Virus record (IMG/VR): IMGVR_UViG_3300008108_004064
Location: 1 to 64,000 of that record
DNA length: 64,000 nucleotides
DNA from: a virus
Direction: 5' to 3' (one strand)
Shown: one piece after another, positions 31,611-61,830 of the stretch
How positions within the stretch are numbered: the first letter of the stretch is position 1
How the letters are laid out: every line of letters begins with the position of its first letter
The notes under the pieces: model-generated
Seen by the model: only the letters and a program-made list of their open reading frames with translations
Databases searched by the model: none
What the model was told of the DNA's origin: nothing
Made by a program: the position numbers and the translations under genes

Positions 31611-32489
31611 ATGAATAAAAAAGTAAAACCAATGCCGTTGCCTTCTATTCCTCAGTTGCCAAAAGCAGGAGAAGCACAGCAAGCTCAAAACCAGGGACGT
31701 CTTGAAGTAAAAATTGATGATTTGAGAAAAGAAAGAATTTTCATTGCAACTCCTTGCTATGGAGGCCAACTAACTGAGGCGTATTTTAGATCGACAATTC
31801 GACTTCTAACATTCTGCAATCAACATCAAATTCCTGTAGCATTCGGAACGATTGCAAATGAATCTTTAGTTACCCGTGCAAGAAATGTACTTGTAGCATA
31901 TTTTCTACAAAGCAACTTTACCCGCCTAATGTTCATTGATGCGGATATTGAATTTCAACTTGAAGATGTTATCAAGTTAATTGCACATGACAAAGATGTT
32001 GTTGTTGGTGCATATCCTAAGAAAGGTGTTAATTGGCAGCGTATTCGTGAAAGCGTACGAGGAACACATGATTCTTTAGATGATAAGCAAATTGCTTCTT
32101 TTGGGAGTGACTATGCTATTAATTTTAAATTCATTAATCGTGATGCAAAACAGATTGCTATTGAGAACGGTCTAATTCGTTTACATGACGGTGCAACAGG
32201 CTTCATGATGATTAAGCGCGAAGTCATTGATAAAATGATTGAAGCATATCCTGAACTTAAATACAACAACGATCTAAATACTCCTAAAGAATTGGATCCC
32301 CACTTCTATGCTTTCTTCGACACAATGATCGATCCGAAAGACAAGCGTTATCTTTCTGAGGATTATACCTTCAGCCGTAGATGGCAAGACATCGGCGGAG
32401 AAATTTGGCTTGATCCTTCAATCTCCCTAAACCACTATGGTTCATTCAACTTCCAAGGTAATCCTTCGCAAATTATTCAAGTAGGATAA
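31611..32489 (+). CDS. GT-A type glycosyltransferase
   Basis: This 292-residue protein has a nucleotide-sugar binding DxD motif (FIDADIEF, Asp110 and Asp112) after a Rossmann-like start (RIFIATPCYGG). A GATGFMMIKREVIDKM block and LSEDYTFSRRWQDIGGEIW acceptor-side block near residues 250–270 complete a GT-A domain. The first 30 residues are proline/glutamine-rich linker. Similar proteins lie beside uvsY in other aquatic T4-like phages. The acceptor (DNA, protein or glycan) is not known. Confidence 0.75.
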   Translation: MNKKVKPMPLPSIPQLPKAGEAQQAQNQGRLEVKIDDLRKERIFIATPCYGGQLTEAYFRSTIRLLTFCNQHQIPVAFGTIANESLVTRARNVLVAYFLQSNFTRLMFIDADIEFQLEDVIKLIAHDKDVVVGAYPKKGVNWQRIRESVRGTHDSLDDKQIASFGSDYAINFKFINRDAKQIAIENGLIRLHDGATGFMMIKREVIDKMIEAYPELKYNNDLNTPKELDPHFYAFFDTMIDPKDKRYLSEDYTFSRRWQDIGGEIWLDPSISLNHYGSFNFQGNPSQIIQVG

Positions 32490-34418: not shown

Positions 34419-34918
34419 TGGAACAATCAAACGTCGTACTCATAAAATTAATAACAGGCGAAAATGTTGTCTGCGAAACAAATGAGGATTGCGATTCTTA
34501 TATCGAAAAAAAGTTTATTGATATCTACAATCCTGTGTTGGTAAATGTTTTAAGAATGCCAAGGGGAACTAATCTTGTAGAATCCTATATTATGATGCCC
34601 TGGGTAGGATTCGCAAAAACAGATTTTTGTAGAATAGCTGCAGATAAAGTTATTACTTTAGTAGATGTAGAAGATGGTATACGAGATAACTATATAGATT
34701 TTGTAGAAAGACGTAAAGAAGAACAGGAGGAGGATTCTGAGGATGAAGGCGGTGTTAAGTTTTTAGAATCCCCAAATGAAACAGAAATGGAAATTGAAGA
34801 ATTTCTTGAACAAGCCTTAGAAAAATTAGGAGATAACCTTGAAGAAGACGAAGAATACGATGGAAGAGAAGATTCCTATTTTGGAAGAGTTAGAAGAAGT
34901 ACAAGAACTCTCCACTAA
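34418..34918 (+). CDS. Conserved small protein, possible Sm-like barrel with acidic tail
   Basis: This 166-residue protein has an N-terminal barrel-like pattern: NVVLIKLITGENVVCE, then FIDIYNPVLVNVL, SYIMMPWVGFAKTDF and a KVITLVDVEDGIRDNY closing segment. Similar small proteins stand next to gp55 in other aquatic T4-like phages; an Sm-like fold is my inference. The last 60 residues are very acidic (EEQEEDSEDEGG, EEFLEQALEKLGDNLEEDEEY). The 3' end overlaps gene 55 by up to 80 bases. The function is not known. Confidence 0.6.
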   Translation: MEQSNVVLIKLITGENVVCETNEDCDSYIEKKFIDIYNPVLVNVLRMPRGTNLVESYIMMPWVGFAKTDFCRIAADKVITLVDVEDGIRDNYIDFVERRKEEQEEDSEDEGGVKFLESPNETEMEIEEFLEQALEKLGDNLEEDEEYDGREDSYFGRVRRSTRTLH

Positions 34919-35465
34919 GCAACCTGCAGAGCCTGCTCATTATGTAGACAATAAAAAGTTTTTACAGGCTCTTATAGACTACAGAAAATTAATAGATGCA
35001 GCCAATGCTGCAGGTGAAGAAATTCCTAGAGTTCCTGATTATATAGGTGAGTGCTTTGTTAAGATTGCTACACACTTATCATATAAATCAAACTTCATTA
35101 ATTACACTTTCCGAGATGATATGATTTCGGACGGCATAGAAAATTGTTTAACTGCCGCCGCAAAATTTGATCCTTCAAAATCATCCAATCCATTTGCTTA
35201 TTATACCCAAATCATTTATTTTGCCTTTATTCGTAGAATACAAAAAGAGAAAAAGCATCAGGCGACTAAATACAAAATAATTGAAAACTTAGATTTAGAT
35301 TCAATTATTCAACAAAATGATGACAGCGAATCTGCAAGACAATTGATAGAGTTTTTGAAAAAACAATTGGATGGAATCGATCCCGAAAAAAGAGAAACTC
35401 CTGCTCAAACCAAAGCTAGAAAAAAGAAACAGTCTGAACCATCTATGGACTTTTTGGATGAATAA
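34860..35465 (+). CDS. gp55: Late-transcription sigma factor gp55
   Basis: This protein has the T4 gp55 pattern: PRVPDYIGECFVKIATHLSYKSNFINYTFRDDMISDGIENCLTAA followed by KFDPSKSSNPFAYYTQIIYFAFIRRIQKEKKHQ, equivalent to sigma70 region 2. I chose the ATG at 34860 (201 residues) over a TTG at 34839. gp55 directs host RNA polymerase to TATAAATA promoters, several of which are present here before 18, 22 and 23. Its start lies within the acidic tail of the preceding gene. Confidence 0.9.
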   Translation: MEEKIPILEELEEVQELSTKQPAEPAHYVDNKKFLQALIDYRKLIDAANAAGEEIPRVPDYIGECFVKIATHLSYKSNFINYTFRDDMISDGIENCLTAAAKFDPSKSSNPFAYYTQIIYFAFIRRIQKEKKHQATKYKIIENLDLDSIIQQNDDSESARQLIEFLKKQLDGIDPEKRETPAQTKARKKKQSEPSMDFLDE

Positions 35466-35468
35466 TAT

Positions 35469-36065
35469 ATGGATCATGATTTAGAATTTGAGAAGCAATA
35501 TTGGAATACTTGCGTTAATACTTTTTATGAGGACAAGAAGCAGTATACATATGCTAGTTATATGGGATTAACTAGAATGTGGGATAGTTTTGATGTACAA
35601 CATAAAACCATTCTGGATATTGGTGGCGGTCCTAGTAGTATGCTTTTGCGATGCGTAAATTTAAAAAAAGGAAAGATAGTAGATCCCATAGATTATCCGC
35701 AATGGACAAAAGATAGATATGCAATTCATAATGTAGATGTTGAAGTAAACTATGGTGAAAATATAAATGAAAAAGGTTGGGATGAGGTTTGGATATATAA
35801 TTGTTTACAACATGTTGAAAGTCCAGAAAAAATATTATTGAATGCGTTGAAGGCGGGAAAATTACTAAGACTTTTTGAATGGATAAACATTCCTCCGCAT
35901 CCCGGACATCCTCACGAGTTGACTTCTTCACTATTTTATAATATACTTACGGATGTTACTAAAACTAAATACTCCAGTGTAGTGAATCTTTGGGACGAGC
36001 CTTCGGCTTGTTATGGTGAAGCTTTTTATGATGTTTTTGAATCGTTAATATATGAGCAAAATTAA
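35469..36065 (+). CDS. Class I SAM-dependent methyltransferase
   Basis: This 198-residue protein has motif I LDIGGGPSSM near residues 44–53 and a later WDEVWIYNCLQHVESPEKIL block, which fits motif IV/V of small-molecule or glycan methyltransferases. No DNA-methyltransferase (N/D)PPY motif is present. Start is the ATG after a weak site four bases downstream of gp55. It overlaps queE by 14 bases, so it is probably part of the 7-deazaguanine operon, but its substrate is unknown. Confidence 0.75.
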   Translation: MDHDLEFEKQYWNTCVNTFYEDKKQYTYASYMGLTRMWDSFDVQHKTILDIGGGPSSMLLRCVNLKKGKIVDPIDYPQWTKDRYAIHNVDVEVNYGENINEKGWDEVWIYNCLQHVESPEKILLNALKAGKLLRLFEWINIPPHPGHPHELTSSLFYNILTDVTKTKYSSVVNLWDEPSACYGEAFYDVFESLIYEQN

Positions 36066-36906
36066 AGTATCTGAATTATTTTATTCTATCCAAGGTGAGG
36101 GGCGTTATATGGGCGTCCCTTCAATCTTTCTTAGAACCTTCGGTTGTAATTTTACATGCGATGGATTTGGTGTACCGAAAGGATTTGTAAATCATGCGCG
36201 AGACATTGTCGCCAAAGACGTTCATCTTTATAAGACTTATAAAGAGCTTCCTCTTGTATCCACTGGTTGTGATTCATACGCTAGTTGGGATCCTCGTTTC
36301 AAGCATCTTTCTCCCGTTCTATCTTGTGACAGTGTTGCCGAGGCAATTGTCGAACTACTTCCACACAAAGAGTGGAAAGACGAACATCTAGTTATTACGG
36401 GTGGAGAACCCTTATTGGGTTGGCAAAAAGCATACCCACTATTGTTAGAGCATCCTAAGATGAAAAATTTGGATGAACTAACTTTTGAGACTAATGGTAC
36501 TCAGCGTTTGAATCCTGAGTTAGAAGAATATCTATTTCAGGAATGGACTCGGTTTGGTCGAGACTATGATAAGTTAACTTTTTCAGTATCGCCTAAATTA
36601 TCGGTATCGGGTGAATCAAAAGAAGATGCTTTGAAACCTGAAGTAATTAAACAGTATCAGGATGTAGGATATACTTATCTAAAGTTTGTTGTGGCTTCGG
36701 AAGAGGATTTAAATGAAGCTGAAGAATGGATTGAGGAATATAAAAAGGCAGGCTTTAGTGGCCCAGTATATTTTATGCCGGTAGGTGGAGTCGAATCTGT
36801 TTACGTCTTAAATAATAAGAAGGTGGCAGAGTTGGCGTTGAAAAGAGGTTATAGGTATTCTGATAGATTGCAGGTGCCTTTATTTAAAAATGAATGGGGC
36901 ACTTAA
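36052..36906 (+). CDS. queE: 7-carboxy-7-deazaguanine synthase QueE
   Basis: This 284-residue radical-SAM enzyme begins with the QueE signature SELFYSIQGEGRYMGVPSIFLR. The cluster ligands are not a compact CxxxCxxC: Cys32 and Cys36 (CNFTC) are followed by the third likely ligand Cys73 in TGCDSYASW, an insertion seen in some phage QueE. The TGGEP motif lies near 116–120. QueE converts 6-carboxy-5,6,7,8-tetrahydropterin to 7-carboxy-7-deazaguanine. Its neighbours folE and queD supply the substrate, and a DpdA-like gene follows. Confidence 0.9.
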   Translation: MSKIKVSELFYSIQGEGRYMGVPSIFLRTFGCNFTCDGFGVPKGFVNHARDIVAKDVHLYKTYKELPLVSTGCDSYASWDPRFKHLSPVLSCDSVAEAIVELLPHKEWKDEHLVITGGEPLLGWQKAYPLLLEHPKMKNLDELTFETNGTQRLNPELEEYLFQEWTRFGRDYDKLTFSVSPKLSVSGESKEDALKPEVIKQYQDVGYTYLKFVVASEEDLNEAEEWIEEYKKAGFSGPVYFMPVGGVESVYVLNNKKVAELALKRGYRYSDRLQVPLFKNEWGT

Positions 36907-37083: not shown

Positions 37084-37509
37084 ATGAGATATTCTTTTCA
37101 GGAGTTTGATGAAGATATACATTATCTAGTTAAACAAATAGAACAATCTTCAAAAAAATATGATTATGTGGTTGGTATTAAACGAGGTGGTCTAATACCC
37201 GCAGTTTGTATCTCTAATGCATTAAAGGTTCCATTATATAGTTTATCTTGGTCTACTAGAGATTTTCCATATAGTGATACTCATAATTCAGCTCTTGCCC
37301 CACTCTCAAAAATACTTTTGGTAGATGATCTTTGTGATTCAGGCAAAACCTTAATTGGAATAAAAGAGTTATATTCCTTTTGCGATATTGACACGGCGGT
37401 GTTATTATATAATGTGGATCAAATCCATGTACCAACATACTATGCTAAAGAATTTAGTAGAAAAGAACAAAAAGAATTTATTGATTTCTGGTGGGAAGAT
37501 TATAAATAA
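37084..37509 (+). CDS. Type I phosphoribosyltransferase-like protein
   Basis: This 141-residue protein has the PRPP-binding loop ILLVDDLCDSGKT near residues 78–90 and an upstream YVVGIKRGGLIPAV segment (pyrophosphate loop). It resembles Gpt-type purine phosphoribosyltransferases. It lies in the 7-deazaguanine block and could salvage or charge a guanine-type base, but this is not shown. Its last codons (DYK, stop) contain the TATAAATA element described next. Confidence 0.8.
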   Translation: MRYSFQEFDEDIHYLVKQIEQSSKKYDYVVGIKRGGLIPAVCISNALKVPLYSLSWSTRDFPYSDTHNSALAPLSKILLVDDLCDSGKTLIGIKELYSFCDIDTAVLLYNVDQIHVPTYYAKEFSRKEQKEFIDFWWEDYK

Positions 37510-37569: not shown

Positions 37570-38247
37570 ATGTCATATAACAAAACAAAAACTGACCCTG
37601 AACTTGGTGCAAGGGTACATGAACATCTTGTAAAGATGGGCGTGGAAACTCCCTCATTTAAAACAACACTAGACCGTAAAGATAAGATTGCAGAAATTGA
37701 AAAAAGTTTCAGTCATATCATGCAGGTATTGGGTCTTGATTTAGACGACGATAGTCTAGCAGAAACTCCAAAGCGTGTTGCTAAGATGTACGTGAATGAA
37801 ATTTTCTGGGGACTAGATTACGACGCATTCCCTAAGTGTACTACTGTTGATAATAAGATGCATTACAATGAAATGGTAGTAGAACGTAATGTCATTGTTC
37901 AAAGTAATTGCGAACATCACTTTGTAGTTATTGACGGTCTTGCTACAGTAGCATATGTACCTAATAAAAAAGTATTGGGACTAAGTAAAATTAATCGTAT
38001 TGTGGAATACTTTAGTAAGCGTCCACAGATTCAGGAACGTCTAACAGAGCAAATTTTTCATGCACTAAGTTATATTCTTGAAACAGATGATGTCGCAGTA
38101 ATGATTGATGCTCAGCATTACTGTGTAAAATCTCGAGGCGTAGAAGATACGGGCAGTTCGACAGTAACAGTTCGTCTCGGTGGTGGCTTTAAAACCGATC
38201 CTGCAGCAAGAAATGAATTTTTAAGTATTGCCCGAATGGGAAAATAA
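37570..38247 (+). CDS. folE: GTP cyclohydrolase I, FolE
   Basis: This 225-residue enzyme has all the FolE metal ligands: Cys114 and His117 in the CEHH motif, and Cys185 in AQHYCVKSRGV. The family blocks LAETPKRVAKMYVNEIFWGLD and KVLGLSKINRIVEYFSKRPQIQERLTEQI (given in parts) are intact. FolE makes dihydroneopterin triphosphate from GTP, the entry of the 7-deazaguanine pathway. It has an AAGGAAG ribosome site and a 60-base leader. Confidence 0.95.
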   Translation: MSYNKTKTDPELGARVHEHLVKMGVETPSFKTTLDRKDKIAEIEKSFSHIMQVLGLDLDDDSLAETPKRVAKMYVNEIFWGLDYDAFPKCTTVDNKMHYNEMVVERNVIVQSNCEHHFVVIDGLATVAYVPNKKVLGLSKINRIVEYFSKRPQIQERLTEQIFHALSYILETDDVAVMIDAQHYCVKSRGVEDTGSSTVTVRLGGGFKTDPAARNEFLSIARMGK

Positions 38248-38760
38248 ATGACAGTTAATATTATGGTTGATCTGGAGACAATGTCTACTAGATCACACGC
38301 TGCGATTTGTTCAATAGGTGCAGTAAAGTTTGAAGGTAAAGAGATTCTCGATACCTTTTACTGCACCATTGACTTACGAACCTGCAAAGATGTTGGATTG
38401 CATATATCTAAAGAAACTGTGGAGTGGTGGTCAAAGCAAAACAAAGAAGCACTAAGAGCTTTAACTAAAGACACAATACCTTTGCAAGAAGCCTTAGATA
38501 AATTTGAGATTTGGTTAGGTCCTAAAAGTTTACCTGTCTGGGGGAATGGTGCAGTATTTGATAATACAATTCTTGCTAATGCATATTTTTATTCGGGTAG
38601 AGAACCTCCTTGGAAATGTTGGGATGACAGATGTTATCGAACGGTTAAGAATTTATTCCATTGGATTCCTGCAGACGAGAGAGAAGGTGTTTATCATAAT
38701 GCTTTAGATGATGCTATGTATCAGACAAAACATTTAATAAAGATTTTAGGTGAAGAATGA
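38248..38760 (+). CDS. DEDD-family 3'-5' exonuclease, DexA-like
   Basis: This 170-residue protein opens with the exonuclease I motif MVDLETMSTRSHAAICSIG (Asp8, Glu10), has KETVEWWSKQNKEAL and the VWGNGAVFDNTIL motif II, and ends with YHNALDDAMYQ (His, Asp). The ETVEWW segment resembles T4 DexA exonuclease A and the Rv2179c-like exoribonucleases. It starts one base after folE and overlaps the glycosyltransferase by four bases (ATGA). In T4 DexA contributes to host DNA degradation; here the operon link with base modification is notable. Confidence 0.85.
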   Translation: MTVNIMVDLETMSTRSHAAICSIGAVKFEGKEILDTFYCTIDLRTCKDVGLHISKETVEWWSKQNKEALRALTKDTIPLQEALDKFEIWLGPKSLPVWGNGAVFDNTILANAYFYSGREPPWKCWDDRCYRTVKNLFHWIPADEREGVYHNALDDAMYQTKHLIKILGEE

Positions 38761-40121
38761 ATACGTATCGTAAAAGAATTGCATTTTGCTTAAGTGATCA
38801 ACATACTATCCCTCATGGTGGCCTTGGTCAATTTGCTAAATCCTTCGTTGAGACTTTTACCCCTCTCGGATATAAGATCGATATCATCACAGACAAACCC
38901 ACAACCAATTTAGATTTTAAAAAATATTTAGAATCAGTTGGTGCTAACTTCGAATGGTGTCCTCAACCAATATCATATAGTAATCACACCAAAACATTTA
39001 TGTTTGAAGATTCCTATAACTTTGAGAAGATGGCATCGTTTAGAGATGCTATGATGCATGCTTTAAGTAGAAATCTCTATGACATTATTATCTGCAACAC
39101 ATTAGAATCTTTTCCCGCAATCTATTCGTTGAACCTACACAAAAATGTACAAATTATTTACTATACTCACAACGAAAGTATGGTATTTCTTGATGACAGA
39201 ACTTGGAAGAATGAATTTACAGAATCCTTTAACGAGGTGTTCAACGCATTGATGCGTGTTAAAGGCATTACTATAGGTACACAGACAGAGAGAAATTTAG
39301 TAGAATTAAATCATAATGGTATTTTAAATTCAGAGTGTTTACCGATTCCAATGACTGAAACTAGTTTGTTGGAAGAAAATTTTAATATTAGAGAAGGTAT
39401 TCTTTGGATCGGTCGTTGGGAGCCAAGAAAGAATCCTGATGAATATATTCGAGTAATTAAAGAAACAGGATTGCCTGCAAAAATTATTACCAATACAAAT
39501 GGTGCAAAAAAGTTCGCAGCTGAACTAGATGCAATAGGCGCTAAATATGAGATGAAGGTTGGGGTGTATGGAAAAGAGAAATCTGATTTTCTAAGATCTG
39601 CTAGGATAGCATATAACCCTGCTATTCGAGAAAGTTTTGGATTGGCATTTTGGGAAACGCTTGGACATATGCCAACCTTTGCTTTAGATGGTATGTCTTG
39701 GTTGAAAAATTTTAATAGTACTTTTTACTTTGCCGAAAGTAAAAATGTAATGGTCAATAAAATTAAAGATGCCTACGAAAAATATTCTAATCCAAAAGAT
39801 TGGTATGATACTGGAGCATTAGAATATGTTAAGAACATTAATAACGAAGGTATCAAAAAATGGATTGCCTGCTTTGATAGTTTTAAACCAACTCAATCAA
39901 ATTCAGATAAAGCAAAAATTAATGAAGTGGAAACCACATCATATAAAGAGTTCATTATAAGTCTAGAAAGAAAGGCTTTGGCTATCGACGATGTCAAATC
40001 TGTATTGACAAACAAAGGAAAATTTAATATAATCTATACTGATGAGAACACTTATTTAACCAAAGATAAAGACTTTATACCAACCGAAAGAAGTAACTCC
40101 TTAGAAAGTTTATTTGTATGA
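38757..40121 (+). CDS. GT-B glycosyltransferase coupled to dpdA-like gene
   Basis: This 454-residue protein is of GT-B type: an N-terminal domain with HGGLGQFAKSFVE and IIICNTLESFPAIYS, then a second domain with ILWIGRWEPRKNPDEY, AKIITNTNG, GKEKSDFLRSARIAYNPAIRESFGLAFWE (in parts). The overall order recalls T4 alpha-glucosyltransferase, which acts on modified DNA bases, but I cannot show closeness. It overlaps the exonuclease before it and the DpdA-like gene after it by four bases each. Tight coupling suggests that it modifies the base which DpdA inserts; this is inference. Confidence 0.8.
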   Translation: MNTYRKRIAFCLSDQHTIPHGGLGQFAKSFVETFTPLGYKIDIITDKPTTNLDFKKYLESVGANFEWCPQPISYSNHTKTFMFEDSYNFEKMASFRDAMMHALSRNLYDIIICNTLESFPAIYSLNLHKNVQIIYYTHNESMVFLDDRTWKNEFTESFNEVFNALMRVKGITIGTQTERNLVELNHNGILNSECLPIPMTETSLLEENFNIREGILWIGRWEPRKNPDEYIRVIKETGLPAKIITNTNGAKKFAAELDAIGAKYEMKVGVYGKEKSDFLRSARIAYNPAIRESFGLAFWETLGHMPTFALDGMSWLKNFNSTFYFAESKNVMVNKIKDAYEKYSNPKDWYDTGALEYVKNINNEGIKKWIACFDSFKPTQSNSDKAKINEVETTSYKEFIISLERKALAIDDVKSVLTNKGKFNIIYTDENTYLTKDKDFIPTERSNSLESLFV

Positions 40122-41407
40122 GCAAACAATTAGAATATGTTATATCAGGTCCTGCATACTTAAGACTGGGTGCAGAGCAATGTAATGATCCTGAGACTTT
40201 AGACATGATTAATAGCATGATTCTAAATACTGTTCACAATAAAAATAACCATCAGTTTTCTCTTTTGTATAATGGATTTACAGAAAAGAACTTTGGAGCC
40301 AAATTACAAAAGTACAGACCAGCAATTAAAAATATTCATGCAGACTCAGGCGGTCTGCAAATTATTACTAGGGGTCTACAAAATACTCCTGAGACAAGAG
40401 AAAAGGTTTATACGAATCAAGGAACCTATGCAGACATAGGTATGGCATTTGACGAAATTCCTGTTAAGGCAACAACTTCATCTGGCACTAGTTCTAAGAT
40501 TGATACTAAGCGTCGCTATGTAGATATAGAAAATTTTGATGCTTATGCAAAGCAAACAGGTAAGAATGTAAAAGATCAGATTGAAAAATTTGATGCTATG
40601 GGAAGTAAATGCCGACCATTTGTTATTGTACAAGGATCGGGTCATGATACCTATGCTAGATGGTCTGAGTTATTATTAAAAGAAATACCACAAAATTTAC
40701 ACAACAGAATAGGCGGAGTTGCTATGGGATCCGCTGCTTTAGGCATGGGTCCTTTGGAAGATGTTAAACGAGCATTTTATGCAACGACTGTTCCTTTTGA
40801 TAAACCTTTTCATCTACACGTTCTTGGTGTAGGTGCATTAAAACGAATCCTTCCTTATCTATTGTTTAGTCAAACTGGTTTATATGAAGGCATAGATATT
40901 TCATATGACTCAACTACACATTCTATGTCGCTGGACAATGGATTGTTTTATTTCTCATTTAGCAAAAAGAATGCGCCAGGTGATTATGGCGGATCATCTG
41001 TAAAAATGGGAAGGGCATATTCTAATATTTACAGAACAGTATCTGAAGAAATTAATTCTGTATGTGGTACATCATATGACCCCGAGGAGTATCACAAGTT
41101 AATGAATATTGCTGTTGGACAATATTTAGAAGAAGGCGGAAAGTTTATTGACATTATGAGAGCAAGATTGGGGTTTATTCTAACCAATGTACATAATTTT
41201 ACATATGACGTTTCTAATCTAATGAATTCTAAAGAAGCATTTTTAAAATTCTGCAGAGAAAAGAATTGTGAAAACGAATATGCCACATTATTTGACGTAA
41301 AAACAATTGATGACTTCAATCATTGGGAATCTCAGGTAGGTAAATTTATGGATTCAGAGCCAGTGAATATTGTAGCACCATCTTCACTTGAGGAGTTATT
41401 TGCATGA
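40118..41407 (+). CDS. dpdA: DpdA-like DNA transglycosylase (TGT-family 7-deazaguanine insertion)
   Basis: This 429-residue protein shows the tRNA-guanine transglycosylase pattern: HADSGGLQI with Asp76, ADIGMAFDEIPV, VQGSGHDTYARW at 171–182, GGVAMGS, HLHVLGVG at 232–239, and a DSTTHS motif at 264–269 for the second catalytic Asp. The CxCxxC zinc site of bacterial TGT is not visible. DpdA enzymes swap guanine in DNA for a 7-deazaguanine; QueE, FolE and QueD-like genes beside it favour DNA over tRNA as substrate. It is coupled by four-base overlaps to the GT-B gene before and the small T-fold gene after. Confidence 0.85.
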   Translation: MSKQLEYVISGPAYLRLGAEQCNDPETLDMINSMILNTVHNKNNHQFSLLYNGFTEKNFGAKLQKYRPAIKNIHADSGGLQIITRGLQNTPETREKVYTNQGTYADIGMAFDEIPVKATTSSGTSSKIDTKRRYVDIENFDAYAKQTGKNVKDQIEKFDAMGSKCRPFVIVQGSGHDTYARWSELLLKEIPQNLHNRIGGVAMGSAALGMGPLEDVKRAFYATTVPFDKPFHLHVLGVGALKRILPYLLFSQTGLYEGIDISYDSTTHSMSLDNGLFYFSFSKKNAPGDYGGSSVKMGRAYSNIYRTVSEEINSVCGTSYDPEEYHKLMNIAVGQYLEEGGKFIDIMRARLGFILTNVHNFTYDVSNLMNSKEAFLKFCREKNCENEYATLFDVKTIDDFNHWESQVGKFMDSEPVNIVAPSSLEELFA

Positions 41408-41799
41408 TTATTAGGCAAGACGTTAGACCCAATAAAATGATCTGGGTTACCTTTCGCAAAGAAGGTATTCATTGTTATCCCGCAGCAGCCACAGATCCTA
41501 ATCTAGCAACAGGAGACAAATATGATGTTTCGTTCCTTGCCAATCCTCATCGGCATATTTTTCATTTCAGGGTGTGGATCTCCATCACTCACAATGACCG
41601 TGATATCGAGTTCATCCAATTCAAACGGTGGTTGGAATCATTGTATTCAGGGGAAGAAGATTGTTTGCGATTGGACTACAAATCATGCGAGATGATGTCA
41701 GATGAATTATATGAAAGAATAACACAAAGATATCCTAATAGAGAAGTTTGGATTGAAGTATCCGAAGATGGTGAGAATGGTTCTTTTATTAAATACTGA
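41404..41799 (+). CDS. Small T-fold protein, QueD-like
   Basis: This 131-residue protein resembles a second 6-pyruvoyltetrahydropterin-synthase/QueD type T-fold domain. The N-terminal EGIHCYPAA lines up with the FxAAH ligand, the PHRHIFHFRVWI strand with LHGHxxxVxI, and IEFIQFKRWLE with DFxxLK. The CEMMSDELYERI and VWIEVSEDGENGSFI segments fit the C-terminal helix and Glu-containing strand. The alignment is my own reading. It starts in a four-base overlap with the DpdA-like gene. It may catalyse a tailoring or reduction step, or replace part of the QueD function, since the other QueD copy has an altered metal site. Confidence 0.6.
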   Translation: MIIRQDVRPNKMIWVTFRKEGIHCYPAAATDPNLATGDKYDVSFLANPHRHIFHFRVWISITHNDRDIEFIQFKRWLESLYSGEEDCLRLDYKSCEMMSDELYERITQRYPNREVWIEVSEDGENGSFIKY

Positions 41800-41806
41800 G
41801 GTTTAA

Positions 41807-42985
41807 ATGAATAAATTATATTACATGGGCTTAGAGCCTTACGAAGGTAGATATACTCTTCAGCTTCAACAATGGAATGAAGAAGTATTTAAACGTCGAG
41901 GCATTAATTATGAAATTATTCATGGTGATACCTTAGATAATTCTAAAGCAATTGTCACGGGACAAGTATTAGATGCACATGGAAGAAGCTATTATTCTTT
42001 GACGCAGATGGCAAAGCTTGTTCAAAAGATGAAAGCGGGCGAAATAAGATATGATGATGTAATTTTCTTTGAGGATATGTTTACCCCCGGTATAGAAGCT
42101 CTTCCATATATTATGGATCAGTGTGGCTGGGAATATCAACCAAGAGTTTTTGTTCGTTGTCTAGCACAGACTATTGATCCTGATGACTTTCTTCATGTCT
42201 GGGATATGCAGGAGTGGATGGCACATTATGAGAAGATGGTAAATGTATGGGTAAACGGAGTTCTTGCTTCTAATGAAGAAATGGTAGCCCATATGAAAAT
42301 TGCAGGTTGGAATGTTCCTATGTATAATATTTCTGGTCTTGCTTTTAGTAAAGATGAAGTTAGAAGTAGAGTTAAGGAAATTAAACCTTTTCAGGAAAGA
42401 AAAAATCGAGTTGTCTTTGCTGCAAGATTCGATCAAGAAAAACAACCTGATTTCTTTATGGATATTGTAGAACATTATGGGCCTAATTCTGATATAGAAT
42501 TTGCAGTATTGTCAGGTGGCCCATTACGCAGCAATGATGAAAAATATTTAGAAAGAGCAAAGCAACTTCAGGCTACTAATTCTAATTTTAAAATTTATGA
42601 AAATTTGCAAAAGAATGAATATTATGAAATTCTTGCAGATTCGAAAGTTCTATTTAATTGCGCACTACAGGATTGGGTAAGTAATACTGCATCAGAAGCA
42701 GACGCTCTAGGAACAAATTGTTTATTTCCTGCGTATAGATCATTCCCTGAGACTTTTGCTAATGATGCAGAATGCCTTTATATCCCTTGGTCAAAAGAAG
42801 ACGCTACAAATAAACTTGAATGTTTATTAGAATTTCCTAGAAGCAATATAGGTAAACTAGCAGATTGGACTTCAGGAACTATTGATAGATGTTTAGATAT
42901 TATTCTTTCAAATCCTGCAGCAAATGAGTATAATAGAAATGTTAAAACATATCGAAACTTTTTAGCACAAAGTAAATATGAATAA
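41807..42985 (+). CDS. GT-B glycosyltransferase
   Basis: This 392-residue protein is a two-domain glycosyltransferase. The N-terminal domain has LYYMGLEPYEGRYTLQLQQWNEEVF and an acidic EDMFTPGIEALPY stretch; the second domain has RVVFAARFDQEKQPDFFMDIVE and the YYEILADSKVLFNCALQDW then SNTASEADALGTNCLFPAY donor-site block. The QLQQWNEEVF-like start recurs in cyanophage proteins of unknown substrate. It ends in an eight-base overlap with the GalE-like gene, so nucleotide-sugar supply and transfer are probably linked. The acceptor could be DNA or a glycan. Confidence 0.75.
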   Translation: MNKLYYMGLEPYEGRYTLQLQQWNEEVFKRRGINYEIIHGDTLDNSKAIVTGQVLDAHGRSYYSLTQMAKLVQKMKAGEIRYDDVIFFEDMFTPGIEALPYIMDQCGWEYQPRVFVRCLAQTIDPDDFLHVWDMQEWMAHYEKMVNVWVNGVLASNEEMVAHMKIAGWNVPMYNISGLAFSKDEVRSRVKEIKPFQERKNRVVFAARFDQEKQPDFFMDIVEHYGPNSDIEFAVLSGGPLRSNDEKYLERAKQLQATNSNFKIYENLQKNEYYEILADSKVLFNCALQDWVSNTASEADALGTNCLFPAYRSFPETFANDAECLYIPWSKEDATNKLECLLEFPRSNIGKLADWTSGTIDRCLDIILSNPAANEYNRNVKTYRNFLAQSKYE

Positions 42986-43967
42986 TACTGTTATTGTAAC
43001 GGGTGCCGCCGGTTATATCGGTGGTACCATATGCGCTAAGCTCAAAGAAAAGGGGTATTCTGTTGTAGGTATAGATAGAAGAGAATTGCCCTCTCATCTA
43101 TATCAATACATAGACCATTTCCTTAAGGTAGATTTTACACATGAGTTTTCTTTAAGGCGTATTGACAGAAAACCGTTGGCGGTTATTCATTGCGCCGGAA
43201 CAAGTTTAGTTGGTCCTAGTATTGAAAATCCAAGTGGTTATTATGACAATAATGTAGTTAAAACTTTAAAGTATATAGATTACATAAGATCTCATTCTCC
43301 ATATACTAAATTTATTTTTAGTAGTAGTGCATCTGTATATGGTAATCCGATGAGTTCAAAACCAATTACTGAAAATTTTGACACTAACCCGATCTCGCCA
43401 TACGGTCAGTCTAAATTGATGACTGAGATGATGCTAAAATCTTTTAAAAGTGCCTATGATTTAAAATATGTTTCATTCAGATATTTTAATGCGTGCGGTG
43501 CCTTAAGCGATGGCGCACATGGTCAGGATCCCGATGCAACGCATATATTTGCCAGACTCTTTGAATCAATAAAAAAAGAAACACAATTCTTTTTAAATGG
43601 CAAAGATTATGTAACAAAGGATGGAACCTGCATACGAGATTATGTCCATGTAGAGGATATAGCCAATGCACACATAATAGCTATTGAAAAAAATATCGAA
43701 GGGATATATAATATAGGATCAGATACAGGTACGTCTAATCTAGAAATTATTAAACAGGTAGGTAAATTTTTCGGGAAACCTCTATCAATAGAGATTAAAG
43801 AACAAAGAATGGGGGATCCCGCAATTTTAGTTGCAAGTGCTAAAAAGTTATCTGATGAAACAGGCTGGAAAGCAGAACATAGTATCAAAAAAATTATTAA
43901 AGATTTAAATGATTGGTATGACTCTGAAAACTATGCCAAGAGGACTAAGGCAATCATCCCTCTATAA
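42978..43967 (+). CDS. galE: UDP-glucose/UDP-GlcNAc 4-epimerase-like, GalE family
   Basis: This 329-residue short-chain dehydrogenase has the NAD site GAAGYIGG near residues 9–16, FSSSASVYG for the catalytic Ser, and Tyr142-x3-Lys146 in SPYGQSK. The FRYFNACGA and THIFARLFE blocks match GalE rather than dTDP-glucose dehydratase. It would convert UDP-hexoses (for example UDP-Glc to UDP-Gal) for the adjacent glycosyltransferase. It is followed by a 41-base gap and queD. Confidence 0.85.
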   Translation: MNNTVIVTGAAGYIGGTICAKLKEKGYSVVGIDRRELPSHLYQYIDHFLKVDFTHEFSLRRIDRKPLAVIHCAGTSLVGPSIENPSGYYDNNVVKTLKYIDYIRSHSPYTKFIFSSSASVYGNPMSSKPITENFDTNPISPYGQSKLMTEMMLKSFKSAYDLKYVSFRYFNACGALSDGAHGQDPDATHIFARLFESIKKETQFFLNGKDYVTKDGTCIRDYVHVEDIANAHIIAIEKNIEGIYNIGSDTGTSNLEIIKQVGKFFGKPLSIEIKEQRMGDPAILVASAKKLSDETGWKAEHSIKKIIKDLNDWYDSENYAKRTKAIIPL

Positions 43968-44008: not shown

Positions 44009-44536
44009 ATGGCAAAATTTTATTCAACAAAAACTTATGGTAATGACAGAGGATTGTCATGTTGTTTCAGACAATGGCGTGCTACACATAGTCATTGTTC
44101 AACATTGCATGGTTACTCAATTGGTATTAAACTCATATTTGAATGCGATACACTAGATGATAAAAATTGGTGTATGGACTTTGGTGGTCTTAAAGAATTC
44201 AAAGCATGGGCAGATCATATGTTCGATCACACATTAGTTGTTGCAGAAGACGACCCGCTGTTAGATCGTTTTAAAGAAATGAGCGGCTGGAGTTCTAATC
44301 CAGAGCATGACGGCAATCCTGAGCGAGTACAAGTAGAACCATATCGCAGATCGGGTGTTTGTGATCTACGTATTGTACCTTCTGTAGGATGTGAAATGTT
44401 TGCTAAACTATGCTATGACAAAATGGCAGAACTGTTGGCATCAGGTAGTATGCGCTATCCAATCAATCCAAGCGTAAGAGTAAAATCTGTAGAAGTATTT
44501 GAACATGCAGGTAACTCTGCTACATATGAAGGATAA
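44009..44536 (+). CDS. queD: 6-carboxytetrahydropterin synthase, QueD
   Basis: This 175-residue T-fold enzyme converts dihydroneopterin triphosphate to 6-carboxytetrahydropterin. Cys30 in CSTLHGY is the likely catalytic Cys, and the MDFGGLKEF, FDHTLVV and C-terminal VEVFEHAGNSATY segments match QueD. One point is odd: the usual HGH zinc motif reads HGY (His34, Tyr36), and the first His of FxAAH is replaced by Trp23; His27 or His29 may substitute. It has a strong AGGAGA ribosome site. Together with FolE and QueE it completes the route to 7-carboxy-7-deazaguanine. Confidence 0.88.
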   Translation: MAKFYSTKTYGNDRGLSCCFRQWRATHSHCSTLHGYSIGIKLIFECDTLDDKNWCMDFGGLKEFKAWADHMFDHTLVVAEDDPLLDRFKEMSGWSSNPEHDGNPERVQVEPYRRSGVCDLRIVPSVGCEMFAKLCYDKMAELLASGSMRYPINPSVRVKSVEVFEHAGNSATYEG

Positions 44537-52279: not shown

Positions 52280-53110
52280 ATGCACACTGATGAAATTACA
52301 TATGACGCCTTTATTCGAAGATGGTTCGGTAGGCTAGGTAACAATATACAGCAATTATCTAATGGCATTTACTTTTGTAAAAAAGAAAATGCTCACTTCA
52401 CTTCCCCAGAACATCCTATGATCAATGCGATTGATCTATGTTTTGGTACAACAAAATATACTATTCCGGAAACTTCTCATAATTGGTTATTTTTCTTTAA
52501 CGGACCAGAAGCAGATTTTGTTTTTGATGTGGATGATTTAAATAAAAACAGAAAGAAAATTTGCGAGGATTTTATACTACCAAACTTAAAGGTAGATCAA
52601 ACTAAAATAAAAGAACCTTTACCTGACGATCACTTAATTATACACTTAAGAAGCGGTGATCTTTTTACTCATTGGCCAAGTACTCACCCTCAAAATCCTT
52701 TGGTTTATTACATGAGTTTACTTAACTTATTTGAATTCAATGCTACTGTCGTTTCCGAGGATGAGAGGCATCCTTTTATAGAAGTGTTCAAAAAATTAAG
52801 AGTGCCTGTAGAAGTATTATCTGTGGAGGATACATATGCTAAGTTGTTGAGAGCTGTAAGTTTAGCTACCTCAGGTATAGGTAGTTTTCCTGTATCCGCT
52901 GCCCTTTGTTCTAAAAATATAAAAAGATTTTATTGTACAAATTTACATCAAGAATATAGTTTAAATCATTTTATGTTAAAAGAACATCTTGAAGTTTATG
53001 TAATGGATCTAGGTGATAAATATATAAAAGTAGGTGAATGGAAATACTCCCCTGAAACCTTTGAGAAGTTTTATAATTATAACGAACATACATTATTTAG
53101 GAGACTATAA
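52280..53110 (+). CDS. GT11-like fucosyltransferase
   Basis: This 276-residue protein has the pattern of alpha-1,2-fucosyl/colitosyltransferases of family GT11: the N-terminal glycine-rich [15 protein letters not shown] segment, corresponding to GGLGNQxFQ, and [11 protein letters not shown] near residue 120, corresponding to the HxRRGD motif. [17 protein letters not shown] segment follows near residue 212. Family assignment is by motif only. No Shine-Dalgarno site precedes the ATG. It is followed by Gmd, which makes the GDP-sugar precursor. Confidence 0.65.
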
Positions 53111-53111
53111 T

Positions 53112-54125
53112 ATGGACAAAAGAGTTGCCTTAATTACAGGCATTACCGGGCAAGACGGTTCTTATCTTGCAGAACTTCTTTTGGAAAAAGGTTATGAGGT
53201 ACATGGCGTTATTCGTCGTAGTTCCTCAATCAATACTTCCCGCATAGATCATATCTATAGTAATTCAAATCTACATTTACACTATGGCGATGTAACTGAT
53301 TCATTGTCCATAATGAATATTCTCAAAAAATATAATCCAACTGAAATTTATAATTTGGCAGCACAAAGTCATGTTAAGGTTTCTTTTGAAACTCCTGAAT
53401 ATACAGCAATGGTAGATGGTCTTGGAACTTTAAAAATTCTTGAAGCTGTTAGAATTTTAAATATGGAAAAGACAACTAAAATTTACCAAGCATCGACTTC
53501 AGAATTATATGGTTTGGTGCAAGAAATTCCTCAGAAAGAAACTACTCCTTTTTATCCTAGATCTCCATATGGTGTAGCAAAGTTATATGCATATTGGATC
53601 GTAAAGAACTATCGTGAATCGTATAATATGTTTGCTTGTTCTGGTATTCTTTTCAACCATGAATCACCAAGACGAGGTTTTAATTTTGTAACTAAAAAGG
53701 TAGTTGATGGATTGGCGAATATCGGAGCAGGATTTCAAGATTGTTTGTACATGGGAAATCTAAATGCGAAAAGAGATTGGGGACATGCAAAAGACTATGT
53801 CAAGGCTATGTGGCTTATTCTACAACAGGACACTCCTGAAGATTTTGTCATAGCTACCGGCGAACAATATTCGGTTAAAGAATTTATTGAAAGATGTGCT
53901 CCCTATTATGGTATGAAGATCCGCTGGGAAGGCGAAGGACTTGACGAAGTCGGCATTAATGATTATACCGGCAAAGTAATTATTCGTGTTGACCCTAAGT
54001 ATTTTAGACCGGCAGAAGTGGAAACTCTTCTCGGAGATGCCACAAAGGCAAAGAGTGTTCTAGGATGGACACCTGAATATTCTTTTGACGATCTAGTCAA
54101 AGAAATGTGTACACAATTTAATTGA
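53112..54125 (+). CDS. gmd: GDP-mannose 4,6-dehydratase, Gmd
   Basis: The ATG at 53112 gives a 337-residue protein beginning [21 protein letters not shown], the usual Gmd start; an upstream in-frame ATG at 53034 would overlap the previous gene. The NAD site is GITGQDG at 10–16, Ser/Thr at STSELYG, and Tyr153-x3-Lys157 in YGVAK. Residues such as [15 protein letters not shown] are typical of Gmd. It makes GDP-4-keto-6-deoxymannose, the branch point for fucose, colitose and perosamine. Confidence 0.96.
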
Positions 54126-54132
54126 GGACAAT

Positions 54133-54759
54133 ATGTATCCTGAGTCATATCAAGAGGTAAATAGAAAAGTAACTGAAAGATACTTAAACTACAATAATGG
54201 TTTTTTTATTGAGGTTGGCGGTGCAGATGGCGTTACTCAAAGTAATACCCTACACCTAGAAAGGTATAAAAATTGGACGGGGGTTTTAGTTGAGCCAAAT
54301 ATTGAGGCGGCAAAAAAATGCCAAATGAACAGACCCAACTCTAAAGTCTTTAATTATGCTTTAGTTGCAGATGATTATCAAGACGAAGAATTAACCATGT
54401 TACATCGAGCTTGGTATAATGGCGATCCTGGTCTAACTTCCTCCGCCCATAATTCTAGTATAAACGATATACCTGAATGGAATGGCTTTAATTACAAGTT
54501 TAATATACCTGCAACAACTTTAACTAATGTGTTAGAAAACTTGAACATGGAAAATCAAACAATAGATTTTCTATCATTGGATGCGGAAGGATATGAATTA
54601 GAAATCTTAAAAGGGTTAGATATGAAAAGATTCTGTCCAAAAATTATTTTAATAGAATGGCATCTTGATCTGCAGGATGTTTTTAACGTGTTAGATTCTA
54701 CACATAAACTGGAAGAACAGTTATCTAAACATGATTATGTTTTTATTCTAAAGGATTAA
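54133..54759 (+). CDS. FkbM-family methyltransferase
   Basis: This 208-residue protein has FkbM features: FIEVGGADGVTQSNTLHLE as motif I, GVLVEPNIEAAKKC, and TIDFLSLDAEGYELEILKGLD with the LDAEGYE motif near residues 150–156. FkbM enzymes O-methylate sugars or other small molecules. Its place between Gmd and the Fcl/ColC-like gene suggests that it methylates a sugar of the island. Confidence 0.9.
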   Translation: MYPESYQEVNRKVTERYLNYNNGFFIEVGGADGVTQSNTLHLERYKNWTGVLVEPNIEAAKKCQMNRPNSKVFNYALVADDYQDEELTMLHRAWYNGDPGLTSSAHNSSINDIPEWNGFNYKFNIPATTLTNVLENLNMENQTIDFLSLDAEGYELEILKGLDMKRFCPKIILIEWHLDLQDVFNVLDSTHKLEEQLSKHDYVFILKD

Positions 54760-54761
54760 CT

Positions 54762-55727
54762 ATGGAAATGTATAAAAGTAGTAAAATATTTGTTGCGGGG
54801 CATAATGGATTGGTTGGTTCCGCAATTGTAAGAAAGTTACAAAACGAAGGATATACTAACTTAGTATTGAGGACTAAGGCTGAACTTGATCTTAGAAATC
54901 AAGATGCAGTTAAAGACTTTTTTAAAATAGAAAAGCCTGAATTTGTATTTCTTGCTGCAGCAAAAGTCGGAGGTATTAATTATAACGCAGAATACCCTGC
55001 CGATTTTATCTATGACAATTTGATGATACAAACAAATGTTATAGACACTGCATATAGAAACGGTGTAAAAAAATTATTGTTTCTGGGATCGGCTTGTATA
55101 TACCCGAAAGTTACTCCTCAGCCAATTAAAGAAGAATATCTATTGACTGCTCCGTTGGAGCCGACAAATGAAGGATATGCTTTGGCAAAAATTACTGGTT
55201 TGAGAATGTGCGAATATTATAGAAAACAGTATGGGTTTAATGCAATTAGTTTAATGCCAGCAAATCTATATGGCACTAACGACAATTTTGATCCTGAAAA
55301 ATGTCACGTTATTCCTGGGATGATTACTAAATTTAATGCAGCTAAAAAGAATAATACTGATGTAACATTCTGGGGTGACGGTACACCTACTAGAGAATTT
55401 TTGTTCGTAGATGATTTAGCAGATGCTTGCTTATTTTTAATGCATAATTATAATGAAAGCGAATTTATTAATGTAGGTTCTGATGTAGAAATTGAGATTA
55501 AGGAACTATGTGAAATTATAAGAAAAGAAATTGGGTTCGAAGGAAACATCATTTGGGATGAATCTAAACCAAACGGAACTCCTAGAAGAAAAATGGACAA
55601 TACTAGATTGTTTAATATGGGATGGAGACCGAAGATAGATTTTAATACCGGACTGGCACAAACAATTAATTGGTTTCTTACAGAAAAAGATCGTATAAAA
55701 ACTCTTATGTCTAGGATCCCAGGATGA
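54762..55727 (+). CDS. fcl: GDP-fucose/GDP-colitose synthase-type epimerase-reductase
   Basis: This 321-residue protein has GHNGLVGS at 13–20, Tyr139-x3-Lys143 in YALAK, and the epimerisation residues Cys112 in GSACIYP and His in CHVIPGM. GDP-L-fucose synthase (Fcl) and GDP-colitose synthase (ColC) share this pattern, so either product is possible. It overlaps the ColD-like gene by four bases. Because the next enzyme is of 3-dehydratase type, ColC function must be considered; Fcl is the default name. Confidence 0.88.
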   Translation: MEMYKSSKIFVAGHNGLVGSAIVRKLQNEGYTNLVLRTKAELDLRNQDAVKDFFKIEKPEFVFLAAAKVGGINYNAEYPADFIYDNLMIQTNVIDTAYRNGVKKLLFLGSACIYPKVTPQPIKEEYLLTAPLEPTNEGYALAKITGLRMCEYYRKQYGFNAISLMPANLYGTNDNFDPEKCHVIPGMITKFNAAKKNNTDVTFWGDGTPTREFLFVDDLADACLFLMHNYNESEFINVGSDVEIEIKELCEIIRKEIGFEGNIIWDESKPNGTPRRKMDNTRLFNMGWRPKIDFNTGLAQTINWFLTEKDRIKTLMSRIPG

Positions 55728-56893
55728 AATGGCCTTTAATGGGTGAGACTATCACTTTGGGTGATAGATTAAAAATGGCACACTTTGCTTTGACCGCTCC
55801 TAAGTTTACCAACGGAGAAAAAGTAAAGAAGTTTGAAAAAGAATGGAACGAGTGGTTGGGATCTAAACATTCTTTGTATGTGTCTTCCGGAAGCACTGCA
55901 AACTTTTTATTGGTTGCTGCAGTAAAAGAATTATACGGTCTTAAGAATGGGGACAAAGTTCTTTTACCTGCATGCACATGGATGACAAATGTTGCACCTA
56001 TCATGCAACTAGGCCTTGAACCAGTATTTTGCGATATTAATCTAGATAATTTTAGTTTCGATGTTGTGGACGTGGTAAAGCTATCGAAGAAGCATGATAT
56101 TAAGATGATCTTCGTAACTCATCTGTTAGGTTTTTCTGCAAATAATGAAGCTTTAAGAACAATTTTTCCGAGAGCTATTATTATAGATGACATATGCGAA
56201 TCACATGGATGTAAAGATGTATATGGTAAAAAGCATGGTTCGAATAGTTTAGGTGCAACATTTAGTTTCTATTTTGGTCACCATATGTCTACAATTGAAG
56301 GTGGAATGATTTCTACTAACAATACTGATCTATATGATCTAATGAAACTAAAGAGAAGTCATGGTATGGCTAGAGAATCTCTTCGTTTCGACGAATATGC
56401 GAAAGCGTATCCAAATATAGATAAGCAGTTTTTGTTCGTCACTGATGGATATAACTTTAGAAATCATGAAATATGTGCAGTGCTTGGTTCTTCCCAGCTA
56501 AAGCGGTTGGACAAAATGATTAGTATTCGTAATAGAAATCACACTTTATTCACTAAAATTATTGACAAATATTCTAATCTCTTTTATAATATTAAAGATC
56601 ATCCTAGCAATAGTAGTTTTTGTTTGCCCTTCATATGTAGGTCAAATGAGATTATGCTTGCAATGAAAGAGAAGTTTATTAAGTATGGTATTGAATATAG
56701 ACCAGTTGTTTCAGGTAATCTTTTAGAGCAACCGTTCTTGGCTAATTATGTAATCGATACTGATAAACAAAGAACAAATGCAGACATTGTACATACGCAA
56801 GGTGTTTATGTAGGCAATAACCACTTTGTTACCGAAGAAGATATGAAATTTTTAGAAAAGGTCGTAGGAGAGATAAATGAATCGTTTAGGTGA
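55724..56893 (+). CDS. ColD-like PLP enzyme with His instead of catalytic Lys
   Basis: This 389-residue DegT/DnrJ/EryC1-fold protein has the normal cofactor blocks (SSGSTANFLL at 54–63, LLPACTWMTNVAPI, IIIDDICESHG at 162–171), but the SxxxxK lysine is replaced: SFYFGHHMSTIEGGM has His186-His187. In GDP-4-keto-6-deoxymannose 3-dehydratase (ColD) and the related CDP-sugar 3-dehydratase E1, His also replaces Lys (His188 in ColD), and the reaction removes the 3-hydroxyl. Length is almost the same as ColD. This suggests synthesis of a GDP-3,6-dideoxyhexose such as colitose, not an amino sugar. It overlaps the gene before by four bases and the next by 17. Confidence 0.85.
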   Translation: MKWPLMGETITLGDRLKMAHFALTAPKFTNGEKVKKFEKEWNEWLGSKHSLYVSSGSTANFLLVAAVKELYGLKNGDKVLLPACTWMTNVAPIMQLGLEPVFCDINLDNFSFDVVDVVKLSKKHDIKMIFVTHLLGFSANNEALRTIFPRAIIIDDICESHGCKDVYGKKHGSNSLGATFSFYFGHHMSTIEGGMISTNNTDLYDLMKLKRSHGMARESLRFDEYAKAYPNIDKQFLFVTDGYNFRNHEICAVLGSSQLKRLDKMISIRNRNHTLFTKIIDKYSNLFYNIKDHPSNSSFCLPFICRSNEIMLAMKEKFIKYGIEYRPVVSGNLLEQPFLANYVIDTDKQRTNADIVHTQGVYVGNNHFVTEEDMKFLEKVVGEINESFR

Positions 56894-61152: not shown

Positions 61153-61159
61153 AATAATT

Positions 61160-61828: not shown

Positions 61829-61830
61829 AT

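What the first reader, a model, noticed from the sequence alone, without database searches (positions are those of the whole stretch)
38757..41407. GT-B glycosyltransferase coupled by a 4-base overlap to the DpdA-like gene
The exonuclease, GT-B, DpdA-like and T-fold genes form an unbroken chain of ATGA overlaps, so their products are translated together. A second GT-B gene and a GalE-like epimerase follow. One reading is that the inserted 7-deazaguanine is glycosylated, analogous to glucosylated hydroxymethylcytosine in T4. I know of no described DNA modification of this exact kind.
Basis: inference. Interest (0 to 1): 0.78.

Follow-up and report, generated by a model that had tools for sequence, protein, structure and literature searches.

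The report
Sliding-clamp-tethered sugar enzyme for phage DNA
A freshwater phage, probably of cyanobacteria, carries a sugar-transferring enzyme joined genetically to the enzyme that swaps guanine in DNA for an altered base; both end in the short tail that the phage's DNA polymerase is expected to use to ride the replication clamp, so the phage probably puts sugars on its own DNA in a way not yet described.

Summary
In detail: exonuclease, GT-B (GT1), DpdA and a T-fold-like gene are linked by ATGA overlaps, and a second GT-B (GT2) and a GalE follow. The GT1-DpdA overlap is kept across relatives. New evidence favours DNA as the target. (1) In the 126-kb record exactly three proteins end in [ST]LExLF: GT1, DpdA and the DNA polymerase. 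T4 gp43 (SLDFLFG) and gp55 (SLDFLY) carry the same kind of tail, their known gp45-clamp epitope. The tail is in 30/33 non-redundant GT1s and 30/32 DpdAs, in none of the neighbouring families, and it varies in step with the polymerase tail. (2) Where GT1 is missing, an unrelated 300-aa protein with the same tail and the same 4-nt overlap fills its slot. (3) DpdA2 clusters fall into two classes: 46/52 non-redundant loci have GT2 plus the T-fold-like gene and no queC at the locus; the other 6 have queC and neither. So GT2 is the near-universal partner, and GT1 a clamp-tethered addition of one clade. GT1 models confidently as a GT4-like retaining GT-B; it is not a T4 alpha- or beta-GT. Best reading: sugar is added to DpdA2-inserted 7-deazaguanine in DNA. 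The exact base, sugar and linkage are unknown.

The parts
38757..40121 (+). GT1: GT4-like retaining GT-B glycosyltransferase, 454 aa, EX7E (E292/E300), GR/K (R220/K225)
   Evidence: weak PF00534/PF13439; invariant residues; AlphaFold2 pLDDT 88.4; Foldseek: MshA 3c4q, BshA, HepE, WaaG
40098..40115 (+). GT1 C-terminal SLESLF tail, inferred sliding-clamp-binding motif
   Evidence: low pLDDT tail with short helix
40118..40121 (+). ATGA overlap of GT1 stop and dpdA start
40118..41407 (+). DpdA2-type DNA guanine transglycosylase, 429 aa; DSGGLQ (D76) and SYDSTTH (D264) conserved
   Evidence: phrog_10773; KVP40 and related vibriophage DpdA, X1, Moby, ACP17; hhalign to E. coli Tgt P=94.7, E=5.7e-8; TIGR00430 E=1e-5, below cut-off
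41384..41401 (+). DpdA C-terminal SLEELF tail, inferred sliding-clamp-binding motif
41404..41799 (+). T131 (phrog_17812): small protein of QueC-less 7-deazaguanine clusters, T-fold/QueD-like, function unknown
   Evidence: hhalign to QueD P=83.6 over 44 columns of the C-terminal half
41807..42985 (+). GT2: second GT-B glycosyltransferase, near-universal partner of QueC-less DpdA2
   Evidence: (PF00534 27.2 bits, cut-off 26.4)
42978..43967 (+). GalE, UDP-glucose 4-epimerase
   Evidence: TIGR01179 288.9 bits, cut-off 262.3
44009..44536 (+). QueD-like 6-carboxytetrahydropterin synthase
   Evidence: PF01242; phrog_2389
36052..36906 (+). QueE-like 7-carboxy-7-deazaguanine synthase
   Evidence: phrog_2076
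37084..37509 (+). xanthine/guanine phosphoribosyltransferase-like protein, recurrent in the cluster
   Evidence: PF00156; closest xanthine PRT, below cut-off
37570..38247 (+). FolE, GTP cyclohydrolase I
   Evidence: PF01227; phrog_2197
38248..38760 (+). Rv2179c-like 3'-5' exonuclease, overlaps GT1 by ATGA here; link not strictly conserved
   Evidence: (PF16473)
34839..35465 (+). gp55-type late sigma factor, ends SMDFLDE (hydrophobic-acidic tail)
   Evidence: phrog_234

Best explanation
The locus is a QueC-less, DpdA2-type DNA hypermodification operon. FolE, QueD and QueE make 7-carboxy-7-deazaguanine; T131 may process it further. DpdA2 exchanges guanine in phage DNA for the 7-deazaguanine base. 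GT2, present in nearly all such phages, and GT1, in this clade, transfer sugar to that base; GalE adjusts the UDP-hexose donor. GT1 and DpdA carry the phage's own C-terminal clamp-binding peptide and so ride the gp45-type clamp on replicating DNA. Shown by sequence or model: gene order, overlaps, fold, intact catalytic motifs, tails, QueC/GT2 exclusivity. Inferred: clamp binding, DNA as acceptor, the modified base as acceptor, sugar identity.
For: Only GT1, DpdA and DNA polymerase end in [ST]L[ED]x[LF]F among 264 ORFs of the 126-kb record. T4 gp43 ends SLDFLFG and gp55 SLDFLYEAND; these C-terminal clamp-binding motifs are interchangeable (PMC2988020). Tail in 30/33 non-redundant GT1 and 30/32 DpdA, 0 in ten neighbouring families, 7 of 1069 other ORFs, four of them DNA polymerases and one the GT1-slot replacement. 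Tail variants match within a phage: BUCT-ZZ01 polymerase LDDFF, DpdA LDSFF, GT1 LEDFF; L280 FF in both. Slot replacement L126:7102-8004 with tail SSLESLFL and the same overlap. GT2 and T131 in 46/52 DpdA2 loci, QueC in the other 6 (Fisher p=4.9e-8). No thymidylate-synthase-fold hydroxymethylase in 16 records. T4 alpha-GT also binds gp45 (PMC13216743). DpdA2-type vibriophages carry dPreQ0 or dPreQ1 in DNA (PMC6884629; PMC12028318).
Against: No biochemical or mass-spectrometric evidence. GT2, the more universal partner, has no clamp tail. KVP40 and pf16 DpdAs lack a good tail although their polymerases have one. GT1 occurs in 6 loci without detectable DpdA (fragments of 9-82 kb). Fold matches are generic GT4 enzymes, including pterin glucosyltransferases. 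A sugar cassette about 8 kb downstream could point to glycan or protein targets. Counts are from related phages, so not independent.
Confidence: 0.6

Rival explanations
1. The glycosyltransferases act before insertion, on the free 7-deazaguanine base or a pterin intermediate; DpdA then inserts the glycosylated base or the product is a small molecule.
For: HuiG is assigned the attachment of GlcNAc to the exocyclic amine of a preQ0-derived base in huimycin biosynthesis (PMC7439116). Foldseek hits for GT1 include cyanobacterial tetrahydrobiopterin glucosyltransferases 9v0l and 5ze7. The cluster holds FolE and PTPS-family enzymes.
Against: A small-molecule enzyme needs no clamp tail, yet GT1 and its unrelated slot replacement both carry one. 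A bulky glycosylated base would have to fit DpdA. This rival remains open for GT2, which has no tail.
Confidence: 0.18
2. GT1 and/or GT2 glycosylate virion protein or host glycan and are in the operon by chance or for expression timing; the downstream sugar cassette is part of the same system.
For: GMD, fucose-synthase-like epimerase, DegT, GT10 fucosyltransferase, GT2-family and carbamoyltransferase genes at 53-63 kb. GT1 fold is generic GT4, shared with LPS enzymes such as WaaG.
Against: GT2 and T131 segregate with dpdA2 and against queC in 52 non-redundant loci. GT1 is tail-matched to the polymerase. The cassette is about 8 kb away and none of its window proteins carries the tail.
Confidence: 0.12
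3. GT1 glycosylates a different DNA base, such as a hydroxymethylated pyrimidine, as in T4.
For: Clamp tail implies DNA; T4 alpha-GT binds gp45 (PMC13216743).
Against: No thymidylate-synthase-fold hydroxymethylase in own record or 15 related records. The 2OG oxygenase at 47780 matches 2OG-FeII_Oxy_3, with no Tet/JBP hit. GT1 stays with folE/queD/queE in L091 and L092, where dpdA is not found.
Confidence: 0.07

Closest known systems
Phage DpdA2 7-deazaguanine DNA modification (Vibrio phage nt-1, KVP40, 6E35.1a; PMC6884629, PMC12028318)
   Same: DpdA2 homologue (28-29% identity to the KVP40-type protein), FolE/QueD/QueE in the same cluster, DNA-modifying context.
   Different: No QueC found; GT2 and T131 present; clamp-type tail on DpdA, absent in KVP40 DpdA; additional clamp-tailed GT1.
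T4 alpha- and beta-glucosyltransferases
   Same: GT-B fold; phage DNA as inferred acceptor; clamp association for alpha-GT (PMC13216743); two GTs in one phage.
   Different: No match to their Pfam families in the Pfam scan; neither is among the top 50 fold hits; no hydroxymethylcytosine synthesis found; GT1 tail is a C-terminal SLExLF, T4 alpha-GT ends differently.
HuiG in the huimycin cluster (PMC7439116)
   Same: GT linked to FolE/QueD/QueE-type genes, proposed to add sugar to a 7-deazapurine.
   Different: Acts on a secreted small molecule; no DpdA, no clamp tail known.
tRNA queuosine glycosylation (mannosyl- and galactosyl-queuosine; from memory)
   Same: Sugar on a 7-deazaguanine nucleoside in nucleic acid.
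   Different: tRNA, sugar on the cyclopentenediol of queuosine; late queuosine enzymes have not been reported in phages of this kind (PMC6884629 found no QueA/G/H).

Membership tests
DpdA2 DNA guanine transglycosylases | homology to the KVP40/nt-1-type protein over full length | tested here: met
   KVP40 28.7% over 96%, E=1e-48; alignment
DpdA2 DNA guanine transglycosylases | TGT superfamily fold/catalytic aspartates | tested here: met
   hhalign to E. coli Tgt P=94.7, DSGGFQ/DSGGLQ aligned; TIGR00430 E=1e-5 (below cut-off); D76 and D264 invariant. Assignment of D264 as nucleophile is by motif only
DpdA2 DNA guanine transglycosylases | 7-deazaguanine in phage DNA | not testable with these tools
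   needs LC-MS
T4-type DNA glucosyltransferases (AGT/BGT) | PF11440/PF09198 sequence family | tested here: not met
   only weak PF00534 and PF13439 listed for GT1
T4-type DNA glucosyltransferases (AGT/BGT) | hydroxymethylcytosine substrate made by the phage | tested here: not met
   no PF00303 match in own or 15 related records (several are fragments)
GT4-like retaining GT-B glycosyltransferases | GT-B fold | tested here: met
   pLDDT 88.4, pTM 0.88; top hits MshA, BshA, HepE at E about 1e-11 to 1e-8
GT4-like retaining GT-B glycosyltransferases | EX7E motif and basic donor-binding residues | tested here: met
   E292, E300, R220, K225 invariant
gp45-type sliding-clamp clients | C-terminal hydrophobic-acidic clamp-binding peptide on a variable linker | tested here: met
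gp45-type sliding-clamp clients | physical binding to the clamp | not testable with these tools
   no complex prediction or assay available; clamp gene present (G000 66047-66703, phrog_223)

The most novel reading that the evidence does not exclude
T4-like phages, probably mostly of cyanobacteria, carry an unrecognised class of DNA hypermodification. A QueC-less 7-deazaguanine pathway (DpdA2 + T131) yields a glycosylated 7-deazaguanine, with GT2 as core enzyme. In some clades an exchangeable, clamp-tethered transferase (GT1, or the unrelated R300 protein) decorates the base at the replication clamp together with clamp-tethered DpdA.
Probability: 0.45. Interest if true: 0.9.

Novelty: new variant of a known kind. 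Interest (0 to 1): 0.8.

Why it matters
Sugar on a 7-deazaguanine in DNA has, to my knowledge and in the open papers searched, not been described; it would combine the two main phage strategies against restriction (base replacement and glucosylation). The clamp tails suggest how a post-replicative base exchange can be coupled to replication, and give a sequence handle for finding further DNA-modifying enzymes. The QueC/GT2 split makes a testable prediction about which DpdA2 phages carry sugar. It may also bear on the very low modified-base levels reported for some predicted phages, where targeted assays would miss an unexpected adduct (inference).

Tried and rejected
DNA-level search of phage records: no match. 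PDB sequence-profile searches for DpdA and T131: nothing useful; GT1 and GT2 gave only one weak hit each and the deeper GT2 profile none. PF01702 (TGT) scan to find another DpdA beside dpdA-less GT1 loci: uninformative, since it also misses known DpdA2s. AlphaFold of the slot-replacement protein R300 from 7 near-identical sequences: pLDDT 44.6, not used; its DND motif only hints at a GT-A. Rejected: GT1 as a T4 GT relative; hydroxymethyl-pyrimidine acceptor. Considered from memory and left open: T131 as the 7-carboxy-7-deazaguanine decarboxylase DpdL (Cui et al. 2023, not held); if so the base would lack a C7 handle and the sugar would need another atom.

Full report
Observation. Searches confirm the genes and three ATGA overlaps: Exo/GT1 (38757-38760), GT1/DpdA (40118-40121), DpdA/T131 (41404-41407). 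The window is bases 1-64000 of a 126,298-base virus record. Among 23 IMG/VR relatives 22 have exactly the 4-nt GT1/DpdA overlap; BUCT-ZZ01 has 8 nt. Of 80 GT1 loci from a wider scan, 7 end inside GT1; of the other 73, 67 have DpdA next downstream (three of these after about 1 kb) and 6 have none in the contig.

What the proteins are. DpdA belongs with the DpdA2-type proteins of KVP40-like vibriophages and is recognisable as a tRNA-guanine transglycosylase relative. Relatives of this subfamily have measured dPreQ0 (nt-1, 0.1% of G; PMC6884629) or dPreQ1 (6E351A, 15% of G; PMC12028318) in DNA. GT1 models with pLDDT 88.4 as a GT-B, nearest to retaining GT4 enzymes such as MshA, BshA and HepE, with EX7E and donor-site residues invariant in 27 sequences. 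GT2 is a second, distantly related GT-B. GalE passes the curated UDP-glucose 4-epimerase cut-off.

The clamp tail. GT1 ends SNSLESLFV, DpdA ends PSSLEELFA. A search of all 264 ORFs of at least 60 aa in the whole record for [ST]L[ED]x[LF]F at the C-terminus returns three: GT1, DpdA and the DNA polymerase (ATLEGLFG). T4 gp43 ends ASLDFLFG and gp55 PSLDFLYEAND, their gp45-binding epitopes; the gp55, gp33 and gp43 C-termini are interchangeable, and the gp55 epitope sits on a divergent linker (PMC2988020); the clamp carries a hydrophobic patch for them (PMC7892883). After removing near-duplicates the tail is in 30/33 GT1, 30/32 DpdA, 0 of T131, GT2, GalE, QueD, QueE, FolE, Exo, PRT, uvsW and SbcD, and 7 of 1069 other ORFs: four DNA polymerases, the GT1-slot replacement and two gp26-like proteins. 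Tails match the polymerase of the same phage in form: LF in most, FF in BUCT-ZZ01 and L280, shortened forms in L258 and L216. Exceptions are KVP40 and pf16 DpdA, and a group of marine contigs whose DpdA ends SLPEDF. T4 alpha-GT co-purifies with gp45, beta-GT does not (PMC13216743), so a clamp-bound DNA sugar transferase has precedent.

Slot replacement. In L122-L126 and L157 DpdA is 80-81% identical to the window's, but GT1 is absent from the whole contig. Its place, with the same 4-nt overlap, is taken by a 300-aa protein (R300) with no family match that ends SSLESLFL. All eight R300 relatives found by its own scan are close copies, and a remote homologue lies near DpdA2 and QueC in L282. Two unrelated proteins keeping both overlap and tail suggest the slot is for an enzyme that works with DpdA at the clamp.

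Two classes of DpdA2 cluster. Among 52 non-redundant DpdA2 loci with enough flank, 46 have both GT2 and T131 and 18 of these also GT1 (in a few of these 18 GT1 is not adjacent to DpdA). The other six (KVP40, pf16, Moby, L239, L254, L282) have neither, and all six have a PF06508 QueC. Of 27 searched records with GT2/T131, nearly all lack QueC; L233's record has one weak hit (23.5 bits) and X1 one below cut-off elsewhere in the genome. The record of L092, which has GT1, GT2 and T131 but no detected DpdA, also has a hit (30.6 bits) far from the cluster. Fisher p=4.9e-8 on 52 loci, 6.3e-6 on the searched records counting the weak L233 hit; phages are related, so these are descriptive. T131 also occurs in 7-deazaguanine clusters of phiST, PA5oct, Phosso and others. 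Hence the pathway here probably branches at 7-carboxy-7-deazaguanine, unless the host supplies preQ0, and GT2 is its standard glycosyltransferase.

Mechanism. FolE, QueD and QueE make CDG (established pathway, PMC13329287). T131 may modify it. DpdA2 swaps it into DNA. GT1 and GT2 add sugar, with GalE shaping the donor pool; GT1 and DpdA act while bound to the clamp. Steps up to CDG follow from known families; insertion is by homology; clamp binding and glycosylation are inferred. No thymidylate-synthase-fold base hydroxymethylase was found in own and 15 related records, so no alternative glycosylated base is apparent. In L091 and L092, GT1 stays with folE, queD and queE although no DpdA is found in the contig; the other four such loci were not read in detail.

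Alternatives and limits. A GT acting on the free base has precedent (huimycin, PMC7439116) and is the main rival, especially for GT2, which has no tail. The cassette at 53-63 kb leaves a glycan or protein role possible but does not explain the tails. Records are metagenomic and fragmentary, hosts unknown; the cyanophage assignment rests on BUCT-ZZ01 being the nearest cultured relative. Relevant papers by Cui et al. 2023 and the 2024 review were not held, so novelty is judged on the open library and memory only; searches for DpdA with the sliding clamp or glycosylated 7-deazaguanine in phage DNA found no report.

Noticed in passing
window 52280-63337: Sugar cassette: GDP-mannose 4,6-dehydratase, epimerase, FkbM methyltransferase, DegT aminotransferase, GT10 fucosyltransferase, GT2-family protein and carbamoyltransferase.
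   Followed up: partly
window 41404-41799; L198, L199, L200, L203: T131 (phrog_17812, unknown function) recurs in 7-deazaguanine clusters of unrelated phages and segregates against QueC.
   Followed up: partly
window 37084-37509: Xanthine/guanine phosphoribosyltransferase-like gene recurs in the cluster; could salvage the guanine released by DpdA (inference).
   Followed up: no
L043 9505-10755; L239 6170-7456: Inositol-3-phosphate synthase next to dpdA2 and queC in Stenotrophomonas phage Moby and relatives.
   Followed up: no
L002 14102-14863; L043 21106-21867: Annotated gp26-like baseplate proteins also end in GLDDFFV / GLEDFFG, like the clamp tails.
   Followed up: no
L058 3695-4686; L086 9353-10344: About 980 bases without an ORF of 80 aa or more on the plus strand between GT1 and dpdA.
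   Followed up: no
L092 3392-4456: IMP dehydrogenase/GMP reductase-family gene inside a GT1/folE/queD/queE cluster with no DpdA detected.
   Followed up: no
window 31611-32489: Conserved GT-A-like protein (weak Anp1/GT2 matches) near the structural genes in most relatives.
   Followed up: no
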